Positions 1 to 18,970 of a DNA stretch of 64,000 bases are shown here, one piece after another (position 1 is the first letter of the stretch; each line of letters opens with the position of its first letter). The position numbers and the translations under genes were made by a program. Origin of the DNA: Deltaproteobacteria bacterium (GTDB taxonomy: Bacteria; Desulfobacterota_D; UBA1144; Nemesobacterales; UBA2774); contig JAVKFU010000018.1 in the NCBI GenBank assembly GCA_040223695.1, positions 310,001 through 374,000 of the forward strand, read 5' to 3'. The notes under the pieces are model-generated. The model was not told the origin of the DNA. It searched no databases and saw only the letters and a program-made list of their open reading frames with translations.

Positions 1-429
1 GATTTTTACAGGAAGCAGAGGGAACTGATGGGGAAGGTAGTAGCGGAGAACGACGCCGTGATCACGACTGCCGCAGTGCCGGGTAAAAAAGCTCCAGTGC
101 TGGTTACGGAAGACATGGTGTCGGGAATGCGGCCCGGCTCAATTATTGTGGACCTCGCGGCAGAGACAGGAGGGAATTGTGAGCTGACCGAAGCCGGTAA
201 AACCGTGGTGAAGCACGACGTAAGTATAATTGGCCCGGTGAACCTGCCGTCCAGCGTGCCTTATCACGCGTCTCAGATGTATTCTAAGAATATCTCCAAC
301 CTGCTTCTCCTCATGGTTGAAGAAGAGGAGCTGAAAATAAATATGGAAGACGAAATAATAAAAGAGTCTATAGTGGTGGATGACGGTAAATTGGTGAACG
401 ACCGGGTAAAGGAAAGTTTGGGACTGTAA
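1..429 (+). CDS. pntAA: NAD(P) transhydrogenase subunit alpha part 1, C-terminal part (5' truncated)
   Basis: The reading frame is open from base 1, so the gene begins outside the window and only about 142 C-terminal residues are seen. They match the end of the soluble NAD(H)-binding subunit of proton-translocating transhydrogenase: the stretch AVITTAAVPGKKAPVL followed by the acidic IIVDLAAETGGNCE is the Rossmann-fold part that binds NAD(H). The enzyme passes hydride between NADH and NADP+, coupled to proton entry across the inner membrane. The next two genes encode the membrane and NADP(H) parts, so this is the three-polypeptide form in which the alpha subunit is split. A strong ribosome site and short gap lead to the next gene, as expected for an operon. 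Confidence 0.93.
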   Translation, partial: DFYRKQRELMGKVVAENDAVITTAAVPGKKAPVLVTEDMVSGMRPGSIIVDLAAETGGNCELTEAGKTVVKHDVSIIGPVNLPSSVPYHASQMYSKNISNLLLLMVEEEELKINMEDEIIKESIVVDDGKLVNDRVKESLGL

Positions 430-457
430 TTAATCATCGATAAGGAGGGAGGTCTGT

Positions 458-739
458 ATGGACAGTTTTTCAGTTGTATTCACAATATTTGTTCTGGCGG
501 CATTTGTGGGCTTTGAAGTGATTTCCAAAGTCCCCCCAACTCTTCATACACCCCTTATGTCGGGCTCAAACGCGATATCCGGTATTACCATAGTCGGCGC
601 AATTATTTCCGCGGGCACCCAGCATACCTGGCTTACAACCGTGCTCGGCTTTCTGGCGGTTGTTTTCGCCGTGATCAACGTGGTCGGCGGATTCATGGTA
701 ACAAACAGAATGTTAGCAATGTTCAAAAGGAAGGATTAA
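458..739 (+). CDS. pntAB: NAD(P) transhydrogenase subunit alpha part 2 (membrane segment)
   Basis: A 93-residue hydrophobic protein with three predicted membrane helices. It corresponds to the membrane-spanning C-terminal part of alpha in enzymes where alpha is split (the Rhodospirillum-type PntAA/PntAB arrangement). The motif SKVPPTLHTPLMSGSNAISG is the diagnostic family signature. The start ATG follows a near-perfect Shine-Dalgarno (AAGGAGG, about 10 nt upstream). The gene lies 28 bp after pntAA and 3 bp before pntB, so the three are surely co-transcribed. It forms part of the proton channel together with the membrane domain of PntB. Confidence 0.95.
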   Translation: MDSFSVVFTIFVLAAFVGFEVISKVPPTLHTPLMSGSNAISGITIVGAIISAGTQHTWLTTVLGFLAVVFAVINVVGGFMVTNRMLAMFKRKD

Positions 740-742
740 GGA

Positions 743-2152
743 ATGTCTCCCGGACTGGTAAACATAGCGTATCTGATAGCGGCAGCTTTATTTATCATCG
801 GCCTGAAAGGGCTTTCTCATCCCAGGACCGCGGTAAGGGGAAACTTGCTCGGCGCTCTGGGCATGCTGATTGCGATTGTAGTTACTCTGCTCGATAAAAA
901 TATTGTCGGATTCGGTGTAATATTCGCGGGATTAATTATCGGCAGCGGCATAGGTGCCGTGCTGGCGATCAGGATACAGATGACCGCGATGCCCCAGCTG
1001 GTGGCCCTTTACAACGGTTTCGGCGGTATAGCCTCGGTCTTCGTAGCCGGTGCTGCCCTGTTCGAAGCGGGGCATCTCGCAGGTACTCCGTTAACGGTGA
1101 ACGCGGACACCCAGTTTTCCCTTTCTATTTTTGCTTCCGGGTTTATCGGGGCTATTACATTCTGGGGGAGCCTGGTTGCTTTCGGAAAACTTCAGGGATT
1201 GACTAATGAGGGCTCTGTCCGCTACCCCGGAGATCAGGTAGTTAAAATCGCGCTGGCAATATTAATGATTATCCTGGCTTATGTAATGGTTGTCTATCCG
1301 TTATCATCGACACCGTATTGGTTGATGGTAATCATGGCGTCATTGCTGGGCATTCTGGTTGTTATACCCATTGGCGGGGCCGACATGCCTGTGGTAATCG
1401 CCATTTTGAACTCCCTGTCGGGACTCGCCGCTGCGGCGACGGGATTCGTTTTATATAACACCGTACTCATAGTCGCTGGTACGCTGGTGGGCGCTTCAGG
1501 AATAATCCTGACATTGATTATGTGTAAGGCGATGAACCGTTCCATAGCCGATGTGCTTTTCGGCACATTCGGCGCCGCTGCGGACGGTCCGTCTTCTGAC
1601 GATGTTTATGCCGGAAAGGTCAAATCGACATCCGCCGAGGAAGTCGCCATGCTGCTCGAAGGAGCGCGCAAGGTTGTGGTGGTCCCCGGATACGGAATGG
1701 CTGTAGCTCAGGCTCAGCACGCTGTAAGGGAGCTTTTCGATCTTCTCGAGAAACACGGTATAACCATGGAGTTCGCCATACACCCGGTCGCGGGACGTAT
1801 GCCGGGCCACATGAACGTCCTTCTGGCGGAGGCCGATATACCTTATGACAGGCTCAAGGATATGGACGATATTAATCCGGGTTTCAAGCAAGTGGACGTT
1901 GCCATTGTAATCGGCGCCAATGACGTTGTTAACCCCGTGGCGAGAACAGACCCCAAGAGCCCGATAGCCGGTATGCCGATACTCGATGTCGATTACGCAA
2001 AAACCGTTGTAGTTATCAAGAGGAGTCTCAGCCCCGGATTCGCGGGAATTCCCAACCCTTTATTCGCCGCGGATAATACCCTCATGCTCTTCGGCGACGC
2101 CAAGAAGATGGTCGATGAGATGGTGAAGAGTGTAAAAGAGGATATGGGCTAG
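743..2152 (+). CDS. pntB: NAD(P) transhydrogenase subunit beta
   Basis: A 469-residue protein of the usual length for PntB. The first 280 or so residues are a run of hydrophobic helices (proton channel). The last about 180 residues are the NADP(H)-binding domain, with the glycine-rich VVVPGYGMAVAQAQH loop and the HPVAGRMPGHMNVLLAEA and VAIVIGANDVVNP signatures. The start has AAGGA immediately upstream, 3 bp from the end of pntAB. The complex supplies NADPH using the proton gradient. Nothing is missing in the visible motifs. No clear terminator was found after the stop; a weak 5-bp GGGGA/TCCCC hairpin lies at 2200-2216. Confidence 0.96.
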   Translation: MSPGLVNIAYLIAAALFIIGLKGLSHPRTAVRGNLLGALGMLIAIVVTLLDKNIVGFGVIFAGLIIGSGIGAVLAIRIQMTAMPQLVALYNGFGGIASVFVAGAALFEAGHLAGTPLTVNADTQFSLSIFASGFIGAITFWGSLVAFGKLQGLTNEGSVRYPGDQVVKIALAILMIILAYVMVVYPLSSTPYWLMVIMASLLGILVVIPIGGADMPVVIAILNSLSGLAAAATGFVLYNTVLIVAGTLVGASGIILTLIMCKAMNRSIADVLFGTFGAAADGPSSDDVYAGKVKSTSAEEVAMLLEGARKVVVVPGYGMAVAQAQHAVRELFDLLEKHGITMEFAIHPVAGRMPGHMNVLLAEADIPYDRLKDMDDINPGFKQVDVAIVIGANDVVNPVARTDPKSPIAGMPILDVDYAKTVVVIKRSLSPGFAGIPNPLFAADNTLMLFGDAKKMVDEMVKSVKEDMG

Positions 2153-2644: not shown

Positions 2645-5600
2645 TTAAGTTCTTTTTTCCCATTTAATTATTTTCAAATCGAGAACGAATATTGAGTAGA
2701 AAACCGGGACGAGTACGAGCTCGATGACCGTGGCAAGGGCAAGGCCTCCTATCTGGGCATAGCAGAGGGGCTGCCATAGAGGCCCTCCGTGAATGGCAAG
2801 CGGAAAAAGGGCGAGTATAGTAGCGCCTACTGTTATCAATATCGGTCTGAGACGCTCAATTCCCGCATCCAGAAGCGAGTCCTTGAAATCTTCCCCTTCG
2901 CTGTGCTTTTCCTCGATGTAGTCAAAGAGGACTATGACGTGGCTCACTATTACGCCTACGAGGCTCGCAATACCGAGGAACGCCATAAAACCGAAAGGCT
3001 CGCGCATAATTAATAGAGCGGTAAGCGACCCGACTACACCGTAGGGAACTGCCGCGAAAACAAGGAACGGTTTCAGCGCATTATTGAACTGAAGCACAAG
3101 GGCCAGGAATATGGCTATGACCGAAATACCGAGGACCATTGTGAGGTTTCTAAAACCTTTGACCTGTTTAGATTTCTCTCCGGCCCATACAAATCTATAA
3201 CCGGGCGGCAAAGAGTCGATAAATTCGTCAATCTCCTTTTCGGCTTTGCTCAGGATTGTCGAAGGAAGCTCCCCGGGTTCGGGGAATGCGATCACGGAGA
3301 TCGTGCGGAAATGCTCGCGTCTCGCAATCCTCGATGTATTCATTCCGTAGTCTATTGATGAAACTTCCATCAGGGGGATTTTCGTCTCGTTGTCCCCGCC
3401 GTAAACATAGAGACTTTGAAGATCCGAGAGCTCGGCCCTTTCATCGATCCTGAGCCTGGCCACAACGGGAATCTGTTTGTCCCCTTCCCTGAATGAAGTG
3501 ACCTGAGCGCCGCTCAGTCCCGCGGCGGAGGATACGGCGATGTCTTGATTCGTTATTCCGGATAAGTTGGCGCGGTCGGGATCGACCTTTAAGCTGACTA
3601 TAAAGCTCTCTTCAAACCAGTCGTCTCTTACCCCCATTGTGCCCGGCGTATTCCGTAATATCGTTTTTAGTTCGCCCGATAGTCTCCTCAGAGTCTCAAT
3701 GTCGGCGGCTTCAGCTTCGGGATCGGAAGATATGTTGGCCTGCCCCGAAAGGTGCATTTCAATCGGATAGTCGATGGCGTTTAACTGAAGCTGTCTTACC
3801 TCGAAATAAGCGCCGGGGATCTTTTCGGTAAGCGCTTTCTGAAAGATCGGGGCAAGCTCAGGAGTGGCTTTTTTATCTTTCAGCTTGATTATGAGCTGGG
3901 CATAGTTTTTCTGTCTCTGCTCGGGCGCGACTGTGTACCAGAATCTGGGACCCCCTCCGCCAATGAAAGAAGTTACCGATTCGAGCTGATTTTCCTCCTT
4001 TTTGCCATCCGCATGGGCAGCGGCGGTCTCCCGGATGACATTCTCGGCTTTACTGGCTACCTCGTTCGTGTTGGAAAGAGTGGTTTCGTTCGGAAGCCAC
4101 ACGTCGACATACGATAGATACTGGACATCTTCCGGGAAGAACGAGGTCTTTAGATTCATGATTACTATCCCGCCTAGTGCGAAGACCACGATGGAAAACA
4201 GCAGAACACGCTTCCTGTGGTTAATAGCGTATCTGCCCGTTCTGTAGTAAAAGCCGTAAAATCCCTTTTTTCTCTTTTCCTCTATAGTAGGCTCTCCGCT
4301 TTTTCTCGGTCTCAGCAGGTAGTAGGCGAGGAATGGGACGAATGACATCGATACGATTCTTGATGAGACGAGGGCGCTTGCCATGACTACAGGTAGGCTG
4401 GATATGAATTCTCCCGTCGTTCCGGTGAGAAGGAGGTACGGGATATATGCCACGATATTCGTGACGGTTGCAAACATTATCGCACGGGCGAGCTTCGTAG
4501 GCCCGAGCCATGAGGCAACAACGGGTGGATGACCTATTGCAAGATTACTTTTTATAGCATCGTTTGCGACCACCGGATCATCCACCAGGAGCCCGAGCGC
4601 AATTATAAGAGTAGCTATCGAGACCTGCTGAAGCTCAATTCCGAGCAGGTTCATAAATCCGAACGTCATGGCAAGGGTCAAAGGAATTGAGATGGCCATC
4701 AGCAGAGCGGAGCGCCATTCACGAAAACCGATCAAGGCGACCAGAACCACCAGGACTATGGCTTCAATAAGCGCCTCCATGAAGAGGCTAAGGTTTTCGC
4801 TCACCTGAAGGGGCTGGTCCGAGGTCTTGGCTATAATCAGGTCATCGGGGATTATATGCTGGAGCTCCGCCTTCGCTTCATCCAGCGCCTGACCGAATTT
4901 GCCTATCTGGTCACCCGAGCGCATCTGCACCGCAAGGGTTACGGCACGGCTCCTCTGCCATTTGCCCGATTCGTCCCGCCACATGTAGTAGTTCAAAAAA
5001 GTGGGCGGGCTTTGATACCCTCTCACGATTTCAAAAATATCACGCAGATAGACGGGCACGCCGTCCGCTGTCTCGGTAATTGCTACATTCCCTATCTCCC
5101 TTACATCGGTGAATTCGCCCGAGGGATATACAATTACTTCCGTGCCGCCTATGTCGAGCACTCCCCCTGGCAGATCGGTATTCCGGGCGTTCAGGGTATT
5201 CTTTATATCGGCCGGAAGGATGCCGTATGATGCAAGCACGTCCTGGGAGTATTCGAGATAGACTCTCTGTGGAAGAACTCCGGAGCGCTCTATGATCGAG
5301 ACCTCCTCAACCGACTGAAGCGTCTCGGCAATGAGTTCGGTAACATCCTCAAGCTCCGTGTAAGTATATTTATCCCCGGCCACGGATTGCAGAGTTTCTT
5401 CCGTTTCCTCAGGACTGGCTATGAGTACGGGCTCCCAGGCATCAATATGAAACCCCGAGAGACCGAGTTTTTCTTTCGAGAAATTTCGGGTGAACGCGAG
5501 AAATGTTTTCTCGTCAGTTAAGACCGAAGCGTCGAGTCCTATGAATCCGGAACCTTTTATGATGCGAGGATCCTCGGCAATTCCCTTTTCAAGCAATGAT

Positions 5601-6274
5601 ATTGAAAGCAGTTCGAATACGCTCTCGATGCTGTCGGTATCGACCGCGCCCGGAAAGGCAAGTATAAATGTCATGCGTTCTGACGTTTCATGTTCGGACG
5701 CTCGGGAGCGCACTGCCTCGATAGACTTTTCGATATTCCGGGCGCGTATAGCGATCTCGATTTCGCTTTCCTTGGGGCTGGCTACGGTAAGCATCATGGC
5801 TGCCGTATTTCCGAAGCCGCTATTGAACTGAATTGGGCCTGCGCCTTCGGGCAGGCGATTATTTAAATAGTCGAGCCTGAGATTTATGTCGTTGAACTCT
5901 TTTGTCGTATCCTTCAGACCTTCCGACAGCTGGACTTGTACAATAGAAACCCCGGGTAGTGAAATTGATTTGATCGCGAATTCGTCCCCGGGGTCGGGCT
6001 CGTGCAGGGAGGAATTCTGGGCGATTGTTTCTTCTATAGGTTTAGTGACGAGCTGTTCTACTTTTTCGGCGTCAGCGCCCGGCCACGGGCATATAGCGAC
6101 AGCGACGAGGACCGGTATATCGGGGTCCTTTTGCTTGGGCATTACAATATAGCTGTAGGCGCCCCATGCAAGCACTGCTATCATAAGAACCCAGGAGATT
6201 GAGCGATTCTCGGTAAAATAGCGTGCAGTGTTGTGTTTATTTGCGATTAGGTCTTTGTCTTTGGGATGGGGCAT
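2645..6274 (-). CDS. RND-family efflux pump, inner-membrane permease subunit
   Basis: A 1209-residue resistance-nodulation-division transporter, longer than AcrB (about 1050). It has an N-terminal membrane helix at about residues 25-45, a large periplasmic porter region with extra sequence, a helix bundle around residues 490-640, a second periplasmic region and a final bundle. The proton-relay acidic pair is present in GLLVDDPVV. The matching TM10 stretch reads GVIVSHVIVLFDYIEE, without the lysine AcrB has there. With the adjacent adaptor and TolC-like genes it should form a tripartite pump driven by proton entry. Substrate cannot be told from sequence. The start ATG lacks a clear Shine-Dalgarno. 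It is last in a minus-strand operon, 49 bp after the YtoQ-like gene. Confidence 0.9.
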   Translation of the reverse strand: MPHPKDKDLIANKHNTARYFTENRSISWVLMIAVLAWGAYSYIVMPKQKDPDIPVLVAVAICPWPGADAEKVEQLVTKPIEETIAQNSSLHEPDPGDEFAIKSISLPGVSIVQVQLSEGLKDTTKEFNDINLRLDYLNNRLPEGAGPIQFNSGFGNTAAMMLTVASPKESEIEIAIRARNIEKSIEAVRSRASEHETSERMTFILAFPGAVDTDSIESVFELLSISLLEKGIAEDPRIIKGSGFIGLDASVLTDEKTFLAFTRNFSKEKLGLSGFHIDAWEPVLIASPEETEETLQSVAGDKYTYTELEDVTELIAETLQSVEEVSIIERSGVLPQRVYLEYSQDVLASYGILPADIKNTLNARNTDLPGGVLDIGGTEVIVYPSGEFTDVREIGNVAITETADGVPVYLRDIFEIVRGYQSPPTFLNYYMWRDESGKWQRSRAVTLAVQMRSGDQIGKFGQALDEAKAELQHIIPDDLIIAKTSDQPLQVSENLSLFMEALIEAIVLVVLVALIGFREWRSALLMAISIPLTLAMTFGFMNLLGIELQQVSIATLIIALGLLVDDPVVANDAIKSNLAIGHPPVVASWLGPTKLARAIMFATVTNIVAYIPYLLLTGTTGEFISSLPVVMASALVSSRIVSMSFVPFLAYYLLRPRKSGEPTIEEKRKKGFYGFYYRTGRYAINHRKRVLLFSIVVFALGGIVIMNLKTSFFPEDVQYLSYVDVWLPNETTLSNTNEVASKAENVIRETAAAHADGKKEENQLESVTSFIGGGGPRFWYTVAPEQRQKNYAQLIIKLKDKKATPELAPIFQKALTEKIPGAYFEVRQLQLNAIDYPIEMHLSGQANISSDPEAEAADIETLRRLSGELKTILRNTPGTMGVRDDWFEESFIVSLKVDPDRANLSGITNQDIAVSSAAGLSGAQVTSFREGDKQIPVVARLRIDERAELSDLQSLYVYGGDNETKIPLMEVSSIDYGMNTSRIARREHFRTISVIAFPEPGELPSTILSKAEKEIDEFIDSLPPGYRFVWAGEKSKQVKGFRNLTMVLGISVIAIFLALVLQFNNALKPFLVFAAVPYGVVGSLTALLIMREPFGFMAFLGIASLVGVIVSHVIVLFDYIEEKHSEGEDFKDSLLDAGIERLRPILITVGATILALFPLAIHGGPLWQPLCYAQIGGLALATVIELVLVPVFYSIFVLDLKIIKWEKRT

Positions 6275-6323
6275 TTTCTTTTTTTCTGAAGCACGGTTGT
6301 TCCGGATATCAGCGCCGGAGATA

Positions 6324-6770
6324 TTATTTTAAAATTATATACCGCAGAATTTCCACTACCTGAGCCGGCGTCCTCGTAGTCGCCCGGGCCGCGGCGTCCA
6401 CTTCCTTGAGCGCATGGTCATGTTCCTCGTCGTGGAGAGTTATAACAGGTTTTCCCAAAGCGCTTGCGTACCCCGCGTCGAACGCCGCATTCCACTGCTT
6501 ATATTTGGGGCCGAATCTGACAATTACAATATCAGAATTAATTATCAGGGTATTGGTCCTTATGGAATTTATTCCGGCCCCCTTTCTGTCGCGCCAGAAA
6601 TTCGAGTCCTCGTCCCCGAGTATCTGAACCCCGCACATATCGCTCGCTTCATGATCCGTGATCGGTGAGTGAAACCTTAGGGGAAGTCCCGAAGAGCCCT
6701 CAATAACTCGCTCCCTCCAGTCTGAGTGTATTTCGCCGGAAAGATATACGTTCCAGATGTGTCCGGTCAT
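6324..6770 (-). CDS. YtoQ-family protein (nucleoside 2-deoxyribosyltransferase-like fold)
   Basis: A 148-residue cytoplasmic protein resembling the YtoQ family. Recognisable parts are the start WNVYLSGEIHSDWRERV, the middle stretch IRTNTLIINSDIVIVRFG and QWNAAFDAGYASALGKPVI near the end. The fold is related to nucleoside 2-deoxyribosyltransferases, in which the AFDAGYA region helps bind the ribose. No reaction has been assigned to YtoQ itself, so I give none. The start has a strong AAGGAGG about 8 nt upstream. It sits between the adaptor and permease genes of an efflux operon, an unexpected place for a cytosolic nucleotide-type enzyme. Confidence 0.8.
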   Translation of the reverse strand: MTGHIWNVYLSGEIHSDWRERVIEGSSGLPLRFHSPITDHEASDMCGVQILGDEDSNFWRDRKGAGINSIRTNTLIINSDIVIVRFGPKYKQWNAAFDAGYASALGKPVITLHDEEHDHALKEVDAAARATTRTPAQVVEILRYIILK

Positions 6771-6859
6771 ATTATCATCCTCCTTGGGACTGTCTGAGCG
6801 ACATCTGTTAAATGATTTACCCTTCTAATTCACAACAGGGGCCCGTCTGCAATCAGATC

Positions 6860-7984
6860 CTACGGTATTACATTTACCTCCTGGCCGTCATGAACAATCT
6901 GAGCGCCCATTACTATTACCTCCTCGCCCCTTTCGAGCCCTTCGGCTACTGCTATCATGTTCCCGTAAACGCTGCCGAGCCCTATGTCTTTTTTCCTGGC
7001 AATGGTTTTTCCGTCACGCCGCTCGGTGACGTAAACCGCGTAACCGTCCTTATTATTTTCGGAGCGCACGACTGAATTCAGGGGCAGGAGTATGGCAGGT
7101 TCATTCCCGCCCGCAGGGTCAAGTGCGAGAGAGGCTATCATGCCCGGTTTGAGGAGATTTTCAGGGTTGGGGACTGTAATCTCTATATTGAACACTCTCG
7201 TTCTCTGGTTTGCTGAAGGCGCTATTTCGGTCACCCTGCCGAGGAAAATAGTATCTTTTATCGACTCGGTAGTAACAGCCATTTCCTCGCCTAGCTTTAT
7301 ATCGCCCAGAATTACATCCGGCACTGAAAACAGAACTTTGACGGAGCTTAAGTCCGCTATGACGAATGCTCTTGTTCCCGGTCTCACATAGCTCCCTACT
7401 TCAATATCACGTTTCAGGACCATTCCGTTCATGGGTGGCCTGAGCGTGCAGTAAGCGAGATTCTGCTCTGCTGCCACTACCTGCGCCTTGCCCCCTTTTA
7501 CCTGGGCCGCCGCTACCTGGTACTCTTTCCTGTCTCGTTCGTAATCGGGCGCCGTGATGCTTTTGGTTGAGTACAGGATTGACGCCCTGTTGAAATCTTC
7601 CGTGCCCTTCTCGAGCGAAGCCTGCGCCTCGGCAAGCTGAGCCCTGGCCTCAACCACCTTGGAGAGGTATTCGGTCTGGTCAATCGCGGCAAGCGGCGTC
7701 CCTTTTAAAACTTCGTCTCCCTCCTGGACATCCCGCAAACGCCCTTCCACTCCCTCTACCTGAAGTATTTCCTGAACATAGCCCTCGACCTTGAAATCAA
7801 GCTCTACCTGCGTGTAGGGATTCACGGTCGCTGTATAGCTTAGAGCGCCCTTTACATTCTGAGGTTCTGCAGTTTGTACTCGGACGGGTGTAACGGCCTT
7901 ATCGTAGTCATCTCCGCCGCATCCGATAAGGGCAGTAACTGCGATTGATAATGCTCCGGCAATAGAGATGTATTTATTTCTCAT
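6860..7984 (-). CDS. RND efflux periplasmic adaptor (membrane-fusion) lipoprotein
   Basis: A 374-residue protein of the HlyD/AcrA adaptor family. It begins with a lipoprotein signal ending in ALIGC, with Cys22 as the expected lipidation site. Then comes the split lipoyl/barrel-sandwich domain around an alpha-helical hairpin (about residues 100-165, rich in Ala/Glu/Gln), a beta-barrel domain, and a membrane-proximal domain ending at VIP. It would bridge the RND pump and the outer-membrane channel. Its ATG abuts the stop of the TolC-like gene with no gap, so translation is probably coupled. Confidence 0.92.
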   Translation of the reverse strand: MRNKYISIAGALSIAVTALIGCGGDDYDKAVTPVRVQTAEPQNVKGALSYTATVNPYTQVELDFKVEGYVQEILQVEGVEGRLRDVQEGDEVLKGTPLAAIDQTEYLSKVVEARAQLAEAQASLEKGTEDFNRASILYSTKSITAPDYERDRKEYQVAAAQVKGGKAQVVAAEQNLAYCTLRPPMNGMVLKRDIEVGSYVRPGTRAFVIADLSSVKVLFSVPDVILGDIKLGEEMAVTTESIKDTIFLGRVTEIAPSANQRTRVFNIEITVPNPENLLKPGMIASLALDPAGGNEPAILLPLNSVVRSENNKDGYAVYVTERRDGKTIARKKDIGLGSVYGNMIAVAEGLERGEEVIVMGAQIVHDGQEVNVIP

Positions 7985-9475
7985 TCACTCTTCTCCCATC
8001 GCTTTTTCGAGCTCCGCTCGCGCCGTCCAGTATCCGAGCACTGCCTTTTGATAAGCGCTGTTCTTCTCCTCAAGCGAGGACTCCGCCTCGAGCACCCCCT
8101 GGAGGAGCGCCGAGCCTTCCCTGTATTTATTCATCTCCACACGGAGCCTCTCCCTTGCGGCCGCCTGCTCCATTTCCGTAACATTTATGAGCACGGCGGC
8201 TTCCTCAAGCTTACGTATCTTTGAGTTTACGTCAATAAGCACAGTGGATTCGGCCTCATCGAGCTCATTTCTCGCTTGAAGCACGCCCCTTTTTTTCTCC
8301 GCTATCTCTTTTTGCTTTCGTCCCCAGTCGAATACGTCCCATTTTGCAAAGAGGCCGATAGTAGCGATGTTTTCAGGCAAGAGCTCAATATCCGGGTTTG
8401 CCGTATACTGAAACTCCACTCCGATTTCCGGAATATACTTGGACTTTTTCAGGCGCACTTCATTTTCGGCGAATTCAATGCCCAATTTTGCGGCTCTTAC
8501 CTCCGGGCGCTGGAAGAGCGCCAGCTCTTCAGCGTTTTCGATGTCTATGACAATAGGTTCTGCGCTGGGTACGGGAGTGACCGCAAAGGGTGTTTCTATA
8601 TCCCGGCCCATAAGATTGTTTAATCGCTCCTTCTCGGTCGCGAGCTCATTTCTGAGTTTAAACTCATCGTATTCCGCCCTGCCAAGTCTGGCTTTTACCT
8701 CCAGACTCTCAGATTCGAGTGCCCTTTCTACCTCAACGTATCGATTGACTAATATATAGAGTTCCTTCAGAAAGACTATTTTTTCCTGGACGGCTTCGAG
8801 AGAGCTCTGGGATTTTAGAATATTGTAGTATTCCTTTTTTACCCTGTCAGCAACTTCCTGACGTCTGAATCTAAGGTCCTCGCCCGAAAGCTCTTTTTGC
8901 ACTTCCCTCTGTCTTACCAGAAGCGATATTTCATATAGATGGGAAATGGGCTGTCCTACCGTGGCCGTTAGAAATGTGGTAAAGTCCGGTGCCGTCCGGA
9001 TTTTAACTGTCTCGGCGGGTATAGGGCCGATTCCGGCGAAATCACCGAAGACTCCTTTCTGAAACGTGAACGCTTCTTCGGTCAGGTGATAAAGCTCATA
9101 CAAGCTGAAGTCGAATTCAGGAAAAAGTCTAGTGCGCGCGGCTTTTATGGCATCACCGGCTTTCTCTACCTCGAGAAGCGCGTTGTCGATATTCTTGTTA
9201 TCGCGGAACGCTATGTCGAGGGCTTCTTCAAGAGTTAATATCTCTATTTCCTCCGCTGCCGGTATTTCCGGTTCGTCCGGGTTCACGTCCTCGCACAGAG
9301 CTGTCATCGGTATCAGCAGAAGGAAGAGGATAGTAGCGGGAAAAGATGCGATGAGATAATTCGATATTGTTTTAAAGCTGAACAGATCTCCCGCTCCGCT
9401 TTCATTCAACATTGGTAAGGTTGATCTCACAGTGTGCGGTATACGGTCCGCGGCGGTGTCGATATTTAGCAGCAT
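7985..9475 (-). CDS. TolC-family outer-membrane efflux channel
   Basis: An outer-membrane factor with the two-fold repeated helical layout of TolC (TLEEALDIAFRDNKNID and a matching second half, with long coiled-coil helices). The open frame extends to 9529. I place the start at the ATG at 9475 because GGGAGG lies 9 nt upstream of it, while no ribosome site precedes 9529. The hydrophobic signal segment (FPATILFLLLIPMTALC) then begins about 47 residues in, which is late for a signal peptide; an ATG at 9412 would place it closer but has poor Shine-Dalgarno. It is the first gene of the efflux operon and diverges from the malate synthase/isocitrate lyase gene. Confidence 0.88.
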   Translation of the reverse strand: MLLNIDTAADRIPHTVRSTLPMLNESGAGDLFSFKTISNYLIASFPATILFLLLIPMTALCEDVNPDEPEIPAAEEIEILTLEEALDIAFRDNKNIDNALLEVEKAGDAIKAARTRLFPEFDFSLYELYHLTEEAFTFQKGVFGDFAGIGPIPAETVKIRTAPDFTTFLTATVGQPISHLYEISLLVRQREVQKELSGEDLRFRRQEVADRVKKEYYNILKSQSSLEAVQEKIVFLKELYILVNRYVEVERALESESLEVKARLGRAEYDEFKLRNELATEKERLNNLMGRDIETPFAVTPVPSAEPIVIDIENAEELALFQRPEVRAAKLGIEFAENEVRLKKSKYIPEIGVEFQYTANPDIELLPENIATIGLFAKWDVFDWGRKQKEIAEKKRGVLQARNELDEAESTVLIDVNSKIRKLEEAAVLINVTEMEQAAARERLRVEMNKYREGSALLQGVLEAESSLEEKNSAYQKAVLGYWTARAELEKAMGEE

Positions 9476-9698
9476 TCCATCAATCCTCCCTGCTGAATTA
9501 TCCTTAATACGCAGAATTCTTTCAAACATGACTATGTTGATTTATATTATAGTAAGATACGCGATGAAATGAAGTCCTGATTACTTCTATTCGGGTTACA
9601 GAGGGGAATTTGCATGACCTGTTTATAACTTATATAAATCTGGTAAGCTAGAACATACCGCCCGGGGTCGGGGTTTAATGTTAGGCTTGTGTAATTTT

Positions 9699-9827: not shown

Positions 9828-9886
9828 CATGTTTCCTTTTTTAAGTTTTGCAAAGCAAAAAAAGCCAAGTAAGGAGAAGGAGATCA

Positions 9887-12800
9887 ATGAGTACCGTTCA
9901 TAATTTACCGAAAGGATCTTTAAAGTCCGTATCTGCGCCGAGGAGCCTGCAGATTAGAAATGATCTGGAGAGCGAATATTCCGATATTTACACTCCCCAG
10001 GTTCTCGATGCGTTAAAGGCGCTATCGGTTTTTAACAAAGACCAGAAAATGCTTATGGAAAAAAGGTATGCCAGAAGAGCGCAGCGCTTTCGCAATAAAG
10101 AAAGGATACGGTTTCTCAATCCTGAGGATTTTATACCCCGCACAAATATAAAGGTACAGGACGCAAGGGACGGGAAGTTTGTGGGTTCCGACATATCGCA
10201 TGATCTGGAGAGACAGTGGATTCAGGGCACAGGGCCCGCGGCAAAGCCGAATACTTCTATAGAAAAAAGCATACGCAACGTTGCATACGCGCTATTATCA
10301 GGAGCTGACGGATGGATGTTCGACGGAGAGGACGCGCTCGGTCAGATCAATACCATGTCTCTCGATAATCAGCGGAACCTTAAGCTTGCGATTAATAAAG
10401 ATCCTGTATTCATGGATACGGCGGAGCGGATCTCCAGGGATATGAACGAGTGGGCACAGGGATTTTTCGGACGCGATATAATCACGGACTGGAGGAAGCA
10501 GCTCGACTTTACAACTAAAATTTTCCGCGCCCGCGGACTGCATCTTGACGACAGACACATAAGGGATGAGAACGGTATCGCGCTTTCGGCTTCAATTGTC
10601 GATGTTGTGCTCTATATAGTTAACAACTACAGGGAGCTTCAGAGTGCGGGTTCTTCCATTGTTCTTTATCTCCCCAAGATTCAGACCGCCGAAGAAGCGG
10701 CATTCTGGAACGAACTCCTTACCGCACTTGAAGATCATCTCGATATACCTGTGGGCTCTATAAAGGTCTATGTGCTTATAGAACAGCTCGAAGCTACTTT
10801 TCAGCTTATGGAAATACGCGCGGCTCTCGGCAGGCATTTCGTGGGATTCAATACCGGAAGATGGGATTACATCAACAGCGTGTCGGACGCAATGGCCTGG
10901 GACGCGACATTTATCAATCCTAATATCGAATCTATTACAATGACTTACGGTTACATGAGAAACTATGAGGACCGTGTGAGGAAAGCGGTGAATACGCCGG
11001 GGATTAACAATAATTACGCGCTCTGGCAGGGCGGTATGGAGCCGAATATTCCTGTCGGAACAAAGAAAGGCGTTGAGGAGGGGATGAAGAAGGCCGTGGC
11101 AGGCGCTGTAAGGGAGCAGAAAGAGGGAGCAAGCGGAAAGTGGGTCGCTCACTGGAAGATGGTCCATATCGTGAGGCCTGTATGGGAAAAGGTCGGCGAG
11201 GCCAACCAGATGGGAAGGAAATTCCTGCCCCTTACCTACACGGACGAGGACGCGGACGGTCTCACGCTGCTTGAGCCGGCGCCGAGGACTGTGCGCGGCG
11301 CGAGGAATCTCCTGAGCGTGGGTCTTCAGTACGGAAACGCGTTCGGACAGGGTTTTCAGGCGGCGGCTCTGAAGCCCGCGGATTTCTTCGGGAATGACGA
11401 CATTCTCTATTTGATGGAGGACGCCGCTACCGGTGAAATAAGGCTCAGTATTCTCTGGGAATGGATACACAAAGAAGCGATACTCAACGAAAACGATAAA
11501 GAAACTGGAGTCAAGGCGGGCGATATCTTTACGGTGGATCTTTTCGAGAAGCTTCTCGCCGAGGAATACGACAAACTCCTCAAGGCGAAAGATAAGGACG
11601 TTCATGACGATTCCAAGCCGACTACACTCCCCATAGCGCGGGAGATAGTAGAGACTTATGTGCTGGACGATGCGAAGACTCCATGGTACATCGATTTACT
11701 TAACATTAATTTAAACAATCATGACCTATCTACGGCGAAAATAAGGATCAGGCAGTACATGGACGCGTTCAAGAAGGACGGGACCAGGATTACCGAAAAT
11801 CTGGACTTTCTGCCGGACGCGCGTCTTGATAATTTCCTTGAGGACGAGCTCGTATCGTTTGAGAGGGAAGTTCAGGAAACAAAGGATTGGTTTGCAACCT
11901 CCAGGTTCAAGGGGATAAGAAGGCTCTACTCCGCGCGTCAGGTTGTACAGCAGCGGGGCACCCTTGAAACCGATTATACGGTGGCCAGAAGGTACTCGGA
12001 GGAATTTTATAACCGCCTGAGAGAACTGTACTCCAGGGGCGAGCAGATTACGAGTTTCGGGCCTTATTCTCCGGGGCAGGTAGTTGCGATGAAGCGTATA
12101 GGGATAGAGGGTATTTATCTGGGCGGATGGGCGACTTCCGCCAAGGGCTCGACCGACGAAGACCCGGGCTCGGACCTTGCCAGTTATCCACTCAGTCAGG
12201 TGCCCGATGAAGCCGCCGTTCTTGTGCGCGCGCTTCTCACCGCTGATAAAAACCAGAAATTCTTCAGATCAAGGATGTCCGACAAGGAAAGAAAGGCTAC
12301 CCCCAGAGTCGATTACAGACCCTTCATAATAGCCGACGCTGACACCGGACACGGCGGAGACGCCCATGTAAGAAATCTCATAAGACGATTCGTCGAGGCG
12401 GGCGTTACCGGATACCACATTGAAGACCAGAAACCCGGAACCAAGAAGTGCGGTCATCAGGGCGGTAAGGTTCTCGTGCCCGTGGACGAGCAGGTGAAGA
12501 GACTAAACGCAGCGAGGTTTCAGCTCGATATAATGAAAGTGGCCGGAATAATCGTCGCGAGGACGGATGCAGAAGCTGCGACACTCCTTGACGGAAGAGG
12601 GGATGAGCGTGATCATCCGTTTATTCTCGGAGCCACGAATACGGACGTGCCTGGATACAAAAACTGCTATCTGGCAATTCTGAAAAGATTCTTCGACAAG
12701 GGAATAACCGATGTAAACGGTTTTATGCTCTACCAGATATCGAATGAGGAATACGAGGAGGCCTATGAGTGGTTCGATAAGGTCGGATTAACGTCCATCA

Positions 12801-14137
12801 TAGACAAGAGCATACAGGCCCTTAAAGAGGGTAAGGAAAGGAGTATTACAAAACCGCTCGATAACGCCGCCACGAAATTTGTGGAGACATGGGAGGTAGA
12901 GTCGGGACTAATGACTTACGCTCAGGCTGTGGCGGACGAGATGGAGTTCCAGATAGAAGAGGGCAGAAGCCTTGATATGACAATCGAGAAATGGTTCAAT
13001 TTTGCAAAACGGTCTTCTTTCCATCATGCCCGGGAGAAGGCGAGATCAATGGGTATAGAAGCTGAATGGGACTGTGAATTATCAAGGACACCCGAGGGTT
13101 ATTACCAGGTAAAGGGCGGTATAGAGTACGCGATTGCGAAATCCCTCGCGGTGGCCCCCTATGCGGACCTTATTTGGATGGAAACTAAAACGGCCGATTA
13201 CGAAGAGGCCAAGGAATTTGCCGAAGCCATACACGCCGTTTACCCGGACAAGATGCTGGCATACAACCTTTCGCCTTCATTTAACTGGGATACGACGGGC
13301 ATGAGCGAGGAGGAGATGAGGGAGTTCCCGAAGGAAATAGGAAAGCTCGGTTTCGTATTCAACTTCATCACTTACGGCGGACATCAGATAGACGGTCTCG
13401 CGGCTGAGGAATTCGCAACGGCGCTCAGGCAGGACGGGATGCTCGCGCTCGCAAGGCTTCAGAGGAAATTCAGGCTCCTCGACTCACCCTACAGAACTCC
13501 GCAGTCACTGGTCGGCGGCCCCAGACTGGACGGCGCTTTATCCGCTTCCTCCGGACGTACGGCAACTACAAAGGCAATGGGTAAAGGCTCTACGCAGGTG
13601 CAGCATCTTGTTGAAACCGAGGTTCCGCCGAGGCTTCTTGAGAATTGGCTCGAATTATGGTCCGAACATTACGGAATTCCCGGACATTTCAGCGTGAAAT
13701 TAAAGCCGCACACATCGGGCTCGGAGCTGCTTGAGCTTATGGTTATAGACGATCTCGATAATAAAGTGGCGGACGTGATATTTTCCACCATACACGACAG
13801 ATGGGGTAGTAACTTCATATCCGTCAGGGATCAGAATACGTACGATCTAAAGTTACGTCAGAAACGCTTGATGGCCTTGATTCATCTCTTCCTTATCCAT
13901 AGGTACAAGGCTGTCTCGGTGCATTATGTGAGTCCTACCGAGGACAACCAGAAGCAGGCGGAAGGGATGAAATCGCTTGGAATTTATGACGAGGTCAACA
14001 CGGAAATAGGGCATATAATTGTAGCTCGTATTAATATGGAACGTGTTAAGGAGCTGCTCAGCTCAGACCTTGTGGAACTCAAGAAATTTATCGCCAAGAA
14101 GTCCAAAGGGAAGGCGTCCAGAAAGAAAACCAAATAA
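9887..14137 (+). CDS. Malate synthase / isocitrate lyase (ICL2-type) fusion: bifunctional glyoxylate-cycle enzyme
   Basis: One uninterrupted 1416-residue frame holding both glyoxylate-shunt enzymes. Residues about 100-610 are malate synthase of the A-like type: [32 protein letters not shown] and [10 protein letters not shown], whose Asp512 matches the catalytic aspartate. Residues about 640-1416 are isocitrate lyase: [31 protein letters not shown] and the active-site KKCGH with Cys855. The lyase is the long form related to mycobacterial AceA2/ICL2, including the roughly 170-residue C-terminal extension. The frame opens at a TTG at 9848, but the ATG at 9887 follows a strong AAGGAGAAGGAG and is the better start. 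Isocitrate would give succinate and glyoxylate, and glyoxylate plus acetyl-CoA gives malate, within one polypeptide. It is monocistronic, with its own promoter and a hairpin after the stop. Confidence 0.93.
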
Positions 14138-14478: not shown

Positions 14479-15402
14479 TTATTGTTTTCTTCTAAGATGT
14501 TTTGATTTGTAGCCCTGTCTTTTACGGGATTTTTTCTTTGAGTAAGACTGGTATGCCAGGGCGCATTCGACAGAGCAGCAGCCCTCAAGCTCATCTCCGC
14601 AGCTTTCACATAGAATTACAAGCTCATCACACGGGGGGTATTTGCAGTTAAAGTAACGGTCGCAGCTCGCACCACAGTGAATGCAGGAAGAAATGCATAC
14701 GCTCCCGGGCTCTATTTCGGAAATAAGCCTCTGGTCGAATACAAAGCACTTTCCCTCCCAAACTGTATTCGGGTATTTCTGGCAAAAATTAATAATCCCG
14801 TCTTTTAACTGATAAACTTCGGTAAAGCCCCGGCTTAACATATACGAGGTGGCTTTTTCGCACCTGATGCCGCCTGTACAATAAGTGACGATTTTCTTGT
14901 CCTTCTTATGTTTCAAGCTTTCAAGGGCTTGAGGAAATTCCCTGAACGAGTCGATGTCGGGTGTTATGGCATTCTTGAATTTACCAACCTCGGACTCATA
15001 GTTGTTTCGCGTATCAAGAATTATGAACTCCTCTCCGTTCTCATATAACTCCAGCAGTTCTTCGGGCGAAATATATTTGCCTCTTTTCCTCATATCGAGG
15101 GGCTGCTCCATTCGTATAATCTCCTCCTTCACCCGGACTATCATCTTTTTGAACGGCTGGAATGTTCCCTCCTCTTCCTTGAACGCTATGTCGGAGAACT
15201 GCGGAATACCTGACAGGTATTCCTTATATCTCCGGATTTGATCTTCCGATCCTGAAAGCGAGCCGTTTATTCCTTCCTTTGCAACGAGTATTTTCCCGAG
15301 CAATCCCAGCCTTTTGCAGAAATCCCTCTGTTCGGATGCAAATTCCTCCGGCTCGTCCATTTCAGTGAATTTGTAAAAGAGAATTATATGAATCTGGCTC
15401 AT
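14479..15402 (-). CDS. trhO: TrhO-type rhodanese (tRNA uridine 34 hydroxylase family)
   Basis: A 307-residue cytoplasmic protein with the layout of TrhO/YceA: an N-terminal acylphosphatase-like domain (KILVAKEGINGSLSG, about residues 36-51), a rhodanese domain (FIILDTRNNYE and the active-site loop YCTGGIRCEKA, catalytic Cys175), and a C-terminal cysteine-rich segment with many Cys pairs that may bind zinc. The E. coli homologue hydroxylates U34 of certain tRNAs, a step in making 5-hydroxyuridine-derived wobble bases. The protein ends in a very basic tail (SKKKSRKRQGYKSKHLRRKQ), suitable for RNA contact. It is monocistronic. The xfp gene upstream on the same strand is separated by a terminator at 15601-15655. 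Confidence 0.9.
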   Translation of the reverse strand: MSQIHIILFYKFTEMDEPEEFASEQRDFCKRLGLLGKILVAKEGINGSLSGSEDQIRRYKEYLSGIPQFSDIAFKEEEGTFQPFKKMIVRVKEEIIRMEQPLDMRKRGKYISPEELLELYENGEEFIILDTRNNYESEVGKFKNAITPDIDSFREFPQALESLKHKKDKKIVTYCTGGIRCEKATSYMLSRGFTEVYQLKDGIINFCQKYPNTVWEGKCFVFDQRLISEIEPGSVCISSCIHCGASCDRYFNCKYPPCDELVILCESCGDELEGCCSVECALAYQSYSKKKSRKRQGYKSKHLRRKQ

Positions 15403-16012: not shown

Positions 16013-18388
16013 TTATTCGCCGGCATGTAACTCGTTCGTCCACTTCCAGTTTTGAATCTCCGGCATATCCTCACCGTGCGCAAGAGCATAGCGTCTATGT
16101 TCGTCAAGCTTATCGTTAAAGTGAGTTATGATGTCGCCGGATATTGACTGGAGGCGCCCGACCCTGTGCAGCACTTCTATTGCGAGATGGTAACGGCTCA
16201 TCGCGTTGCAGGCAACCATGTCGAAAGGAGTGGTTGTTGTGCCTTCCTCCATATAACCGCGTACATGAAAGCGCTCGGGCTCGGGCCTACGGTAGACGAG
16301 TTCATGAATAACCCTCGGATAGCCGTGAAAGGCAAACACAACTGGCGCGGTATCGGTAAACAGATCTCTGAATGAAGCCTCGTCGAGCCCGTGCGGGTGG
16401 TCTTTGTGAAGATTGAGTGTCATCAAATCGACCACGTTGACCAGGCGGACCCTGAGTTCGGGAAGGTGTTTGCGGAGAAGCCACGCAGCGGCCACGGTCT
16501 CAAGCGTGGGCACATCGCCCGCGCATCCCATTATCACATCGGGCTCGGAGCCGCCGTCGTTTGATGCCCATTCCCAGACGGAAGCTCCTTTTGCGCAGTG
16601 TTTACGTGCCGAGTCCATGTCAAGCCACTGGAGCTCCGGCTGTTTACCTGCAATGATAAGGTTTATATAGTCCGTTGATCTGAGACAATGGTCCGCTACT
16701 GAAAGGAGGCAGTTTGCGTCGGGCGGGAGATAAATTCGCACTACGGAGCTTTTCTTGCTCATAAGCGAGTCGATGAAACCGGGTCCCTGATGGCTGTAAC
16801 CGTTATGGTCCTGCCGCCATGAGTGAGAAGTCAGGAGGTAGTTAAGTGAGGAGAGGGGCGCACGCCACGGTATTTCTGAGCACATCTTGAGCCATTTGGC
16901 ATGCTGATTGAGCATAGAGTCAACAATCGTTGCGAATGCCTCGTAGCAGGGAAAGATTCCGTGCCTCCCGGTTAATAAATAACCCTCGAGCCATCCCTGA
17001 CACATGTGCTCGCTCAGTACTTCCATCACTCGGCCGTCAGGGGCTATATGATCGTCCGTATCGATAATCTTTTCTACTAAGCAGCGGTCTGTTACCTCGA
17101 AAACTGCGTTTAGCCTGTTGGATTTCGTTTCATCAGGACAGAAGAGACGGAAATTCTTCTGATCCTCATTCTTTTTGAAAACGTCACGGAGGAATTCGCC
17201 GAGCTCGCGAGTGGATTCAGCTGTGAGCGTCCCCGGCTCTTTTATGTCAAGCGCATAATCTGAGAAATCAGGGAGGTCGAGCGCCGCAAGCAGCTTCCCT
17301 CCGTTCGCATGGGGGTTCGAGCCCATGCGCCTATCACCGGAAGGGGCCAGTTCCGCAAGGTCCCCGATTATGCGGCCGGATTTATCAAATAGCTTCTCCG
17401 GCTCATAGCTCCTCATCCAATCCTCCAAAATCCTCAAGTGCTCCGGGTTCTCCCTTACGTTTGTCACAGGGACCTGATGCGACCGGAACGTTCCCTCAAT
17501 CTGAAGACCATCGATGGATTCGGGCGCGGTCCAGCCCTTGGGCGTGCGGAGGATAATCATTGGCCAGTCCGGGCGCCGCGTAAACCCCTTTCTCCGGGCG
17601 TCTTCCTGAATGCCCTTTATTTCGGCGTATATTGTATCCAGCGTCTTTGCCATACTTTTATGCACTTTATGGGGGTCGTCTCCTTCGACGAAATAGACGG
17701 AATATCCGAGGCCGCCGAAGAGTGACCTGAGCTCCTTGTCACCAGTTCTTCCCAGCACCGTCGGGCCCGCTATCTTGTAACCGTTTAGGTGGAGGACAGG
17801 GAGTACGGCGCCGTCCCTCGCAGGATTCAGGAATTTGTTCGACTGCCAGCTCGCCGCAAGCGCGCCGGTTTCGGCTTCTCCGTCCCCTACGACGCAGGCT
17901 ACCAGCAAATCGGGGTTGTCCATAGCGGCACCGAAGGCGTGTGCAAGTGAGTACCCGAGTTCCCCTCCTTCGTTAATGGAGCCCGGAGTCTGCGGTCCCG
18001 CGTGGCTCGGCATTCCTCCCGGCCATGAGAACTGTCTAAACAGCCGGAGCATTCCTTCTTCGTCCTGCGTAATGTCGGGATATATTTCGGTGTATGTGCC
18101 TTCGAGGTAGGTATTGGCGAACAGGGCGGGACCTCCGTGCCCGGGGCCCGCGATATAAATAATGTTTGCGCCGTAATCCCTGATTATTCTGTTCAGGTGT
18201 ACGTAAATCAGGTTCAGGCCGGGAACTGTTCCGAAGTGTCCCAATAGTCTGGGCTTAATATGTTCGGCCTTGAGGGGCTCGCGGAGAAGGGGATTTTCTT
18301 TAAGATATATCTGCCCGACGGATAAATAATTCGCGGCCTGCCAGTATCTATGAATTTTATCGAGTAATTTTTTAGAGAGAGTAGCCAC
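16013..18388 (-). CDS. xfp: Xylulose-5-phosphate/fructose-6-phosphate phosphoketolase
   Basis: A full-length (about 791 residues) thiamine-diphosphate enzyme. It splits xylulose 5-phosphate (and often fructose 6-phosphate) with phosphate into acetyl phosphate plus glyceraldehyde 3-phosphate (or erythrose 4-phosphate). Family signatures seen: [15 protein letters not shown] near the start, [43 protein letters not shown] (ThDP/Mg site) and [16 protein letters not shown]. The frame extends to a TTG at 18403, but the GTG at 18388 has GGGGG 8 nt upstream and is the more likely start. It is monocistronic. No phosphotransacetylase or acetate kinase gene is in the window, so the fate of acetyl phosphate is not shown here. 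Confidence 0.95.
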
Positions 18389-18970
18389 CGTTTTAACCCC
18401 CAAAGTGAAGAGCTTGTTCTAACTGATGCAGTATTAAAATCTAGGATACATACCGTAACCCTAGATTCATAGCTTTTTTTATTACAGCGCGCTTTTCACA
18501 CGCGGTACTTCATCCGATGATAGAAAATTCTATTGCGGATGACAAACTCCTGTTTCACTTTGACTCTGTGAAACCACCTGTTTTAGTTCAATAATTTATA
18601 TAGATGAACCCTATATTCGCTCGTCTATTAAAATATTTAAATACGTTTTAGTAAATCTGAGTCTTTCCAGTATTACCTTCTTGAGTCTGGGGGGAGTTTT
18701 ATAAATGGGACGGTTGTAATCAGGTTATAAAGTGGAACTCGGTCATCTCTGCGCAATGCCGGCTTTTTGAGAAATTTTATTTTCTTCCTGACTGTCACTA
18801 ACTAACCGGATCGATATAGTTGCGAATACCTATAGCTATAATTTAAGTATTACGAATTAATCTCATAAGTTTAACGTCACGAGGGCTGGTTCATCCTGTT
18901 TGTTCAATAGCTGGATCCTAGGCGCATAAGGGACGTCCCGTCATATTATTCTTATAGATTTTGTTACTAC
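18389..18970. other. Intergenic region upstream of xfp with two hairpins
   Basis: About 580 AT-rich bases. Two inverted repeats stand out: 18511-18541 (CATCCG/CGGATG outer arms with ATAGAA/TTCTAT inside) and 18552-18574 (GTTTCAC/GTGAAAC, 9-nt loop). They lie 110-190 bp upstream of xfp and could be operators or leader structures. No coding sequence is supported; the minus-strand frame at 18918-19337 is a shadow of the glucosidase gene. Confidence 0.4.

What the first reader, a model, noticed from the sequence alone, without database searches (positions are those of the whole stretch)
9887..14137. Single-gene malate synthase-isocitrate lyase fusion with an ICL2-type lyase
One continuous 1416-residue frame joins malate synthase (N-terminal) to a long isocitrate lyase (C-terminal) with both active sites visible (Asp512, KKCGH Cys855). 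Known bifunctional glyoxylate enzymes are mainly eukaryotic: nematodes have the lyase first, and Euglena is reported to have the synthase first. The lyase half here resembles mycobacterial ICL2, whose C-terminal domain is activated by acetyl-CoA, which is also the malate synthase substrate. The fusion could therefore channel glyoxylate and be gated by its own co-substrate.
Basis: partly seen in the sequence, partly recalled or inferred. Interest (0 to 1): 0.8.

Follow-up and report, generated by a model that had tools for sequence, protein, structure and literature searches.

The report
Fused malate synthase–isocitrate lyase 2 enzyme
One bacterial gene makes both enzymes of the glyoxylate shunt (the route by which cells build sugars from fats and acetate) as a single chain, with a lyase half of the type that acetyl-CoA switches on in the tuberculosis bacterium; such fusions have been noted in bacteria before, but this one turns out to be an old two-gene pair that has joined several separate times across bacterial phyla.

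Summary
Window 9887-14137 (+) is one open frame of 1416 aa: a malate synthase half (about 20-640), a short linker, and a complete ICL2-type isocitrate lyase (657-1405). It is not an assembly error: the same unbroken frame occurs in 15 related genomes (74-87% identity) and both halves are under strong purifying selection. It is the genome's only malate synthase and only full isocitrate lyase. The lyase half aligns end to end with Mtb ICL2 (65% identity), including the acetyl-CoA-binding domain (54%; all 16 family-invariant residues shared).

The claim that such fusions are mainly eukaryotic needs correcting: papers of 2006 and 2016 list an ICL/malate synthase fusion in Anaeromyxobacter. Elsewhere the two genes usually sit side by side (synthase, then ICL2). 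The fused state changes at least 8 times on a 75-row tree, and one origin is rejected (p-AU 1e-8). Several fused linkers still carry the old ICL2 start codon; the window gene has lost it.

Bifunctionality is very likely; gating by acetyl-CoA is likely by homology; channelling has no direct support. New member of a known kind, with a more informative evolutionary setting than reported.

The parts
9871..9882 (+). Tandem AAGGAG, Shine-Dalgarno-like, 4 and 10 nt before the ATG
   Evidence: read directly
9887..14137 (+). CDS of the malate synthase-isocitrate lyase 2 fusion, 1416 aa, monocistronic (divergent from the TolC-like gene 7985-9529, convergent with the rhodanese/trhO-like gene 14479-15402)
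9944..11806 (+). Malate synthase half (residues 20-640): MSA-like fold, divergent long subfamily with a conserved C-terminal tail (RITENLD)
   Evidence: Pfam; phmmer to 3cux/3cuz; AF2 pLDDT 86.7; Foldseek 3cv2/3cuz TM-target 0.87-0.89
11420..11422 (+). Asp512, predicted catalytic base of malate synthase (with Arg216, Glu299, Asp327)
   Evidence: alignment to 3cux/3cuz; all invariant in 75 homologues
11807..11854 (+). Linker (residues 641-656, [16 protein letters not shown]); relict of the intergenic region and ICL2 start, no start codon left here
   Evidence: AF2 pLDDT <50 at 646-651
11855..13615 (+). Isocitrate lyase catalytic part (residues 657-1243) with the ICL2/fungal-type helical insert (about 921-1064)
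12449..12451 (+). Cys855 of the KKCGH catalytic loop
   Evidence: invariant Cys in 75 homologues
13619..14101 (+). ICL2 C-terminal GNAT-like acetyl-CoA-binding domain (residues 1245-1405)
   Evidence: 54% identity to Mtb ICL2, 16 of 16 family-invariant residues shared; AF2 and Foldseek to 6ee1/6edw

Best explanation
The gene encodes a bifunctional glyoxylate-shunt enzyme that is the organism's only route from isocitrate via glyoxylate to malate. The C-terminal ICL2 half splits isocitrate into succinate and glyoxylate. The N-terminal malate synthase half condenses glyoxylate with acetyl-CoA to malate. The ICL2 half most probably assembles as a tetramer whose C-terminal GNAT-like domains bind acetyl-CoA and switch the lyase on, so the shunt opens when acetyl-CoA, also the second substrate, is plentiful; this would take the place of AceK-type control of isocitrate dehydrogenase, for which no gene was found. 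The fusion arose by loss of the stop codon between two adjacent genes (malate synthase then ICL2). It ensures 1:1 production and keeps the two sites in one particle, which may limit free glyoxylate. Shown here: frame, domain content, active-site residues, single copy, conservation, two-gene relatives, repeated change of state. Inferred: both activities, tetramer, acetyl-CoA activation, benefit of fusion.
For: Single frame conserved in 16 Dadabacteria-type genomes. Only one malate synthase and one full isocitrate lyase in a genome 95.6% complete. Catalytic residues of both halves invariant in 75 homologues. End-to-end ICL2 match with conserved C-terminal domain. Mtb ICL2 is activated about 50-fold by acetyl-CoA (PMC6788997). 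No AceK. Synonymous change far exceeds non-synonymous in both halves. Split relatives keep malate synthase directly upstream of ICL2, and fused linkers of relatives retain the ICL2 start codon. The distances of the two halves correlate (r 0.78, 0 of 2000 permutations as high). At least 8 changes fused/split, one origin rejected at p-AU 1e-8.
Against: No activity has been measured for any bacterial member that I found. The malate synthase half scores far below the curated cut-off for canonical malate synthase A (233 against 594.5 bits), so its activity rests on residues and fold. Acetyl-CoA contact residues could not be checked one by one. Many relatives do well with two separate genes, so fusion is not required.
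Confidence: 0.8

Rival explanations
1. The fusion is a near-neutral consequence of two adjacent genes losing a stop codon; both enzymes work independently, with no channelling and no new regulation beyond what ICL2 alone has. (Compatible with the best explanation on activities; differs on the benefit of fusion.)
For: Split genes lie a few tens of bases apart and often in frame, so a single mutation can fuse them. State changes at least 8 times, possibly in both directions. The linker is short, variable and predicted to be disordered.
Against: Within the window's family, and in the four genomes of a second family of the order that carry the gene, the fused state is retained in every genome where the junction can be read, over deep divergence; the window gene has even lost the internal start codon that sister genera keep.
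Confidence: 0.45
2. Metabolic channelling: the fusion passes glyoxylate directly from the lyase site to the synthase site and is gated by its own co-substrate.
For: Glyoxylate is reactive, and PMC4921024 lists an ICL/malate synthase fusion among fusions around unstable intermediates. The acetyl-CoA domain is conserved.
Against: No structural evidence for apposed sites; the two halves were predicted apart and the linker is poorly ordered. PMC4921024 itself notes that fusion alone was found not to promote channelling.
Confidence: 0.15
3. The lyase half mainly serves the methylcitrate cycle (methylisocitrate lyase), with the synthase half as a side partner.
For: Mtb ICL2 gains methylisocitrate lyase activity with acetyl-CoA or propionyl-CoA (PMC6788997).
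Against: No PrpD homologue in the genome; a separate 290-aa isocitrate-lyase/PEP-mutase family protein exists elsewhere; the usual neighbour or partner is malate synthase.
Confidence: 0.05
4. Assembly or sequencing artefact that removed a stop between two genes.
For: Split relatives do exist.
Against: Same unbroken frame in 15 related genomes and open to the contig end in two more; purifying selection on both halves.
Confidence: 0.01

Closest known systems
Anaeromyxobacter ICL/malate synthase fusion (Kondrashov 2006, PMC1630690; gene-fusion survey 2016, PMC4921024)
   Same: Bacterial fusion of the two glyoxylate-shunt enzymes; an A. dehalogenans lyase copy groups with one mycobacterial copy and the eukaryotic-type lyases, as expected of ICL2.
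   Different: Domain order and C-terminal domain could not be checked here; no fused gene turned up in 379 sampled genomes of the Myxococcota group. Different phylum.
Mycobacterium tuberculosis ICL2 (6edw, 6edz, 6ee1; PMC6788997)
   Same: Whole lyase half, helical insert, KKCGH loop and GNAT-like acetyl-CoA-binding C-terminal domain; 65% identity.
   Different: Mtb ICL2 is a stand-alone protein; here it is joined to a malate synthase.
Euglena gracilis malate synthase/isocitrate lyase (cited in PMC1630690)
   Same: Synthase first, lyase second, one chain.
   Different: Eukaryotic, very divergent; an ICL2-type C-terminal domain has not been reported to my knowledge (not tested here).
Nematode ICL-malate synthase (PMC1630690)
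   Same: Bifunctional glyoxylate-shunt protein.
   Different: Reverse order, and the lyase resembles that of alphaproteobacteria.
Malate synthase A (3cuz, 3cux)
   Same: Fold and catalytic residues of the N-terminal half.
   Different: About 27% identity, about 110 residues longer, well below the curated MSA cut-off.

Membership tests
Bifunctional malate synthase-isocitrate lyase fusion | both domains in one uninterrupted chain | tested here: met
Bifunctional malate synthase-isocitrate lyase fusion | both activities in one purified protein | not testable with these tools
   active-site residues of both halves are invariant in 75 homologues, but no assay
Isocitrate lyase 2 (ICL2) | isocitrate lyase core with KKCGH loop | tested here: met
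   TIGR01346 452.5 bits over cut-off 275.9; Cys855 invariant
Isocitrate lyase 2 (ICL2) | helical insert absent from short bacterial lyases | tested here: met
   residues about 921-1064 align with Mtb ICL2, 40% identity
Isocitrate lyase 2 (ICL2) | C-terminal GNAT-like domain | tested here: met
   54% identity over 161 residues, 16 of 16 invariant residues shared; AF2 and Foldseek to 6ee1 and 6edw
Isocitrate lyase 2 (ICL2) | activation by acetyl-CoA with domain rearrangement | not testable with these tools
   published for Mtb ICL2 (PMC6788997); no assay here
Malate synthase A (canonical, TIGR01344) | score over the curated equivalog cut-off | tested here: not met
   232.9 bits against 594.5: a divergent MSA-like subfamily, not canonical MSA
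Malate synthase (any isoform) | TIM barrel with Arg, Mg-binding Glu and Asp, and catalytic Asp | tested here: met
   PF01274 and PF20659 over cut-off; Arg216, Glu299, Asp327 and Asp512 align with 3cux/3cuz and are invariant; fold match

The most novel reading that the evidence does not exclude
A conserved malate synthase-ICL2 module, from which stand-alone mycobacterial ICL2 would be a derived exception, has fused repeatedly in bacteria to give a self-contained shunt enzyme whose lyase is switched on by acetyl-CoA, the co-substrate of its synthase half, in place of AceK-type control.
Probability: 0.35. Interest if true: 0.6.

Novelty: new member of a known kind. Interest (0 to 1): 0.4.

Why it matters
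ICL2 is studied as an acetyl-CoA-gated switch in Mycobacterium tuberculosis, where it stands alone. In many other bacteria it lies beside, or is fused to, one particular malate synthase subfamily. That suggests a natural partner for ICL2, supplies many sequence variants of its sensor domain, and points to cultured hosts of the fused form (Bythopirellula polymerisocia, Aeoliella straminimaris) in which gating and glyoxylate handling can be tested. The repeated joining of the same two genes is also a replicated case of enzyme fusion around a reactive intermediate.

Tried and rejected
1. The genome search tool reported about 1000-aa 'open frames' with malate synthase plus short ICL1 in Planctomycetota and the Myxococcota group, which looked like a second kind of fusion. 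Strict stop-to-stop ORFs showed separate neighbouring genes in all 19 loci checked (L125-L143), so I dropped it. 3. I looked for control of the branch point by AceK: absent. 4. Methylcitrate-cycle role: no PrpD. 5. No RNA family at the locus; promoter and terminator pattern counts are near chance. 7. A first ORF script had a bug and was rerun. 8. The full chain is too long for structure prediction, so the relative placing of the two active sites was not modelled.

Full report
What is there. Window 9887-14137 on the + strand is one frame of 1416 residues with an ATG and a strong tandem AAGGAG in front of it. Pfam sees malate synthase (TIM barrel 212-442, C-terminal domain 506-570) followed by isocitrate lyase from 661. 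Against solved structures, residues 657-1405 align with M. tuberculosis ICL2 from end to end (1133 bits), and residues 27-566 align with malate synthase A (157 bits with the synthase half alone as query).

It is real. The window lies in a 3.03-Mb genome, 95.6% complete, whose nearest named relatives are Candidatus Dadabacteria. Fifteen other genomes of the same phylum carry the full frame unbroken at 74-87% identity, and two more carry it open across the junction to a contig end. Pairwise comparisons of close relatives show synonymous change well above non-synonymous change in both halves (for example dS 0.45 against dN 0.02 in the synthase half). The genome has no other malate synthase and no other full isocitrate lyase; the only further hit is a 290-aa protein of the wider lyase/PEP-mutase family. 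The gene stands alone: its upstream neighbour is divergent, its downstream neighbour convergent, and this arrangement is kept in relatives of the family.

The lyase half is ICL2. Against the Mtb protein the barrel segments are 74% and 82% identical, the helical insert 40% and the C-terminal domain 54% (65% overall). Across 52 diverse homologues, 16 positions of the C-terminal domain are invariant, and all 16 are the same in Mtb ICL2. A predicted model of this half (mean pLDDT 81.5) matches the apo and acetyl-CoA-bound Mtb structures best. The moderate TM-scores and high rmsd in that search probably reflect the placing of the mobile C-terminal domain, which in Mtb moves by 77 A on average between states (PMC6788997). 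The same paper reports about 50-fold activation by acetyl-CoA with a KM near 3 uM. That the same happens here is inference.

The synthase half is malate synthase A-like but not canonical: it scores 233 bits against a curated cut-off of 594.5, is about 110 residues longer and about 27% identical, yet its fold is matched by 3cv2/3cuz (TM normalised to target 0.87-0.89). Arg216, Glu299, Asp327 and Asp512 correspond to the known catalytic and magnesium-binding residues (alignment; roles from PMC3112382, and general knowledge) and are invariant in all 75 homologues. A C-terminal tail ending in RITENLD is conserved also in unfused relatives, which suggests a role of its own.

Where it comes from. 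A scan of 85,000 species genomes returned 371 relatives, the best 80 of which were read. Sorting them and some further loci by strict open reading frames gave, among 75 complete and distinct pairs, 22 fused and 53 split, the split ones with malate synthase upstream of ICL2 on the same strand, mostly within tens of bases. Fused members lie in Dadabacteria, in planctomycetes including the cultured Bythopirellula polymerisocia and Aeoliella straminimaris, and in single MAGs labelled Krumholzibacteriia, Vicinamibacteria, Latescibacterota, Thermoanaerobaculales and Pseudobacteriovorax. On the tree the state changes at least eight times. Holding all fused rows in one clade is rejected (p-AU 1e-8), and so is uniting the Dadabacteria and planctomycete fusions (p-AU 3e-7). 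Counts of changes cannot tell fusion from fission, and single MAGs may hold errors or be mis-binned, so the two well-populated fused clades are the firm part. The linkers point to fusion by loss of a stop codon: they run 11-41 residues between two fixed borders, and in several (L008-L011, L021, L036) the methionine of the ICL2 start is still there (EDEMDDFEREV, PMSNTSFDKEI, TMSVFDQQV). In the window gene that codon is gone (GAG GAC GAG CTC GTA TCG), so a separate ICL2 is not expected to start there. The distances of the two halves correlate as expected of genes inherited together (r 0.78; 0 of 2000 permutations as high). The link is not absolute: in acidobacteria the long malate synthase often occurs with a short lyase elsewhere, and ICL2 with a canonical malate synthase elsewhere.

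What was known. Characterised fusions are those of nematodes (lyase first) and Euglena (synthase first), but a bacterial one in Anaeromyxobacter dehalogenans was noted in 2006, together with a lyase copy of the mycobacterial/eukaryotic clade (PMC1630690). A 2016 survey listed an ICL/malate synthase fusion among fusions around unstable metabolites (PMC4921024), under an identifier whose taxid is Anaeromyxobacter sp. Fw109-5. I found no paper describing the distribution of this fusion, its repeated origin, or any assay of a bacterial member in the library searched; most subscription papers are not held.

How it most likely works. ICL2 makes succinate and glyoxylate, the synthase half turns glyoxylate and acetyl-CoA into malate, and acetyl-CoA binding to the C-terminal domains raises lyase activity, so that the shunt opens when acetyl-CoA accumulates. 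The genome has no AceK, which fits control at the lyase rather than at isocitrate dehydrogenase. No PrpD was found, so a methylcitrate role is less likely. A phosphoketolase gene, which makes acetyl phosphate, lies two genes downstream on the other strand, but whether that neighbourhood matters is unknown. Direct channelling is possible and untested.

Verdict. Ordinary enzymes in an uncommon but already reported arrangement. The added value is the identification of the lyase as full-length ICL2 with its sensor domain, the conserved two-gene arrangement from which it most likely arose, and the evidence for more than one origin.

Noticed in passing
window 16013-18403 (-): Phosphoketolase (XFP, all three Pfam domains) two genes downstream of the fusion; its acetyl phosphate could feed acetyl-CoA.
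   Followed up: partly
window 28-2152 (+) and 2645-9529 (-): NAD(P) transhydrogenase subunits, then an RND efflux/membrane fusion/TolC set with a YtoQ-like gene inside; this block and the trhO-like gene at 14479-15402 keep their order next to the fusion in family members.
   Followed up: partly
L054, L056, L014 and other split loci: Unfused long malate synthases end in a conserved RITENLD tail just before the stop, with no partner fused: a possible docking or folding element.
   Followed up: no
L156 and L041 (Conexibacter sp. S30A1): Two separate malate synthase-ICL2 gene pairs in one complete genome, one of them next to a short ICL1 gene.
   Followed up: no
L147 (G568): ICL2 next to a canonical-type malate synthase A (30% to the window half) instead of the long subfamily: partner exchange.
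   Followed up: no
L008, L010, L011, L016 linkers: An in-frame ATG preceded by a GA-rich stretch (GAGGATGAG ATG in L010 and L016) inside the fused frame could still start a separate ICL2, so both fused and free lyase might be made in those genera.
   Followed up: no
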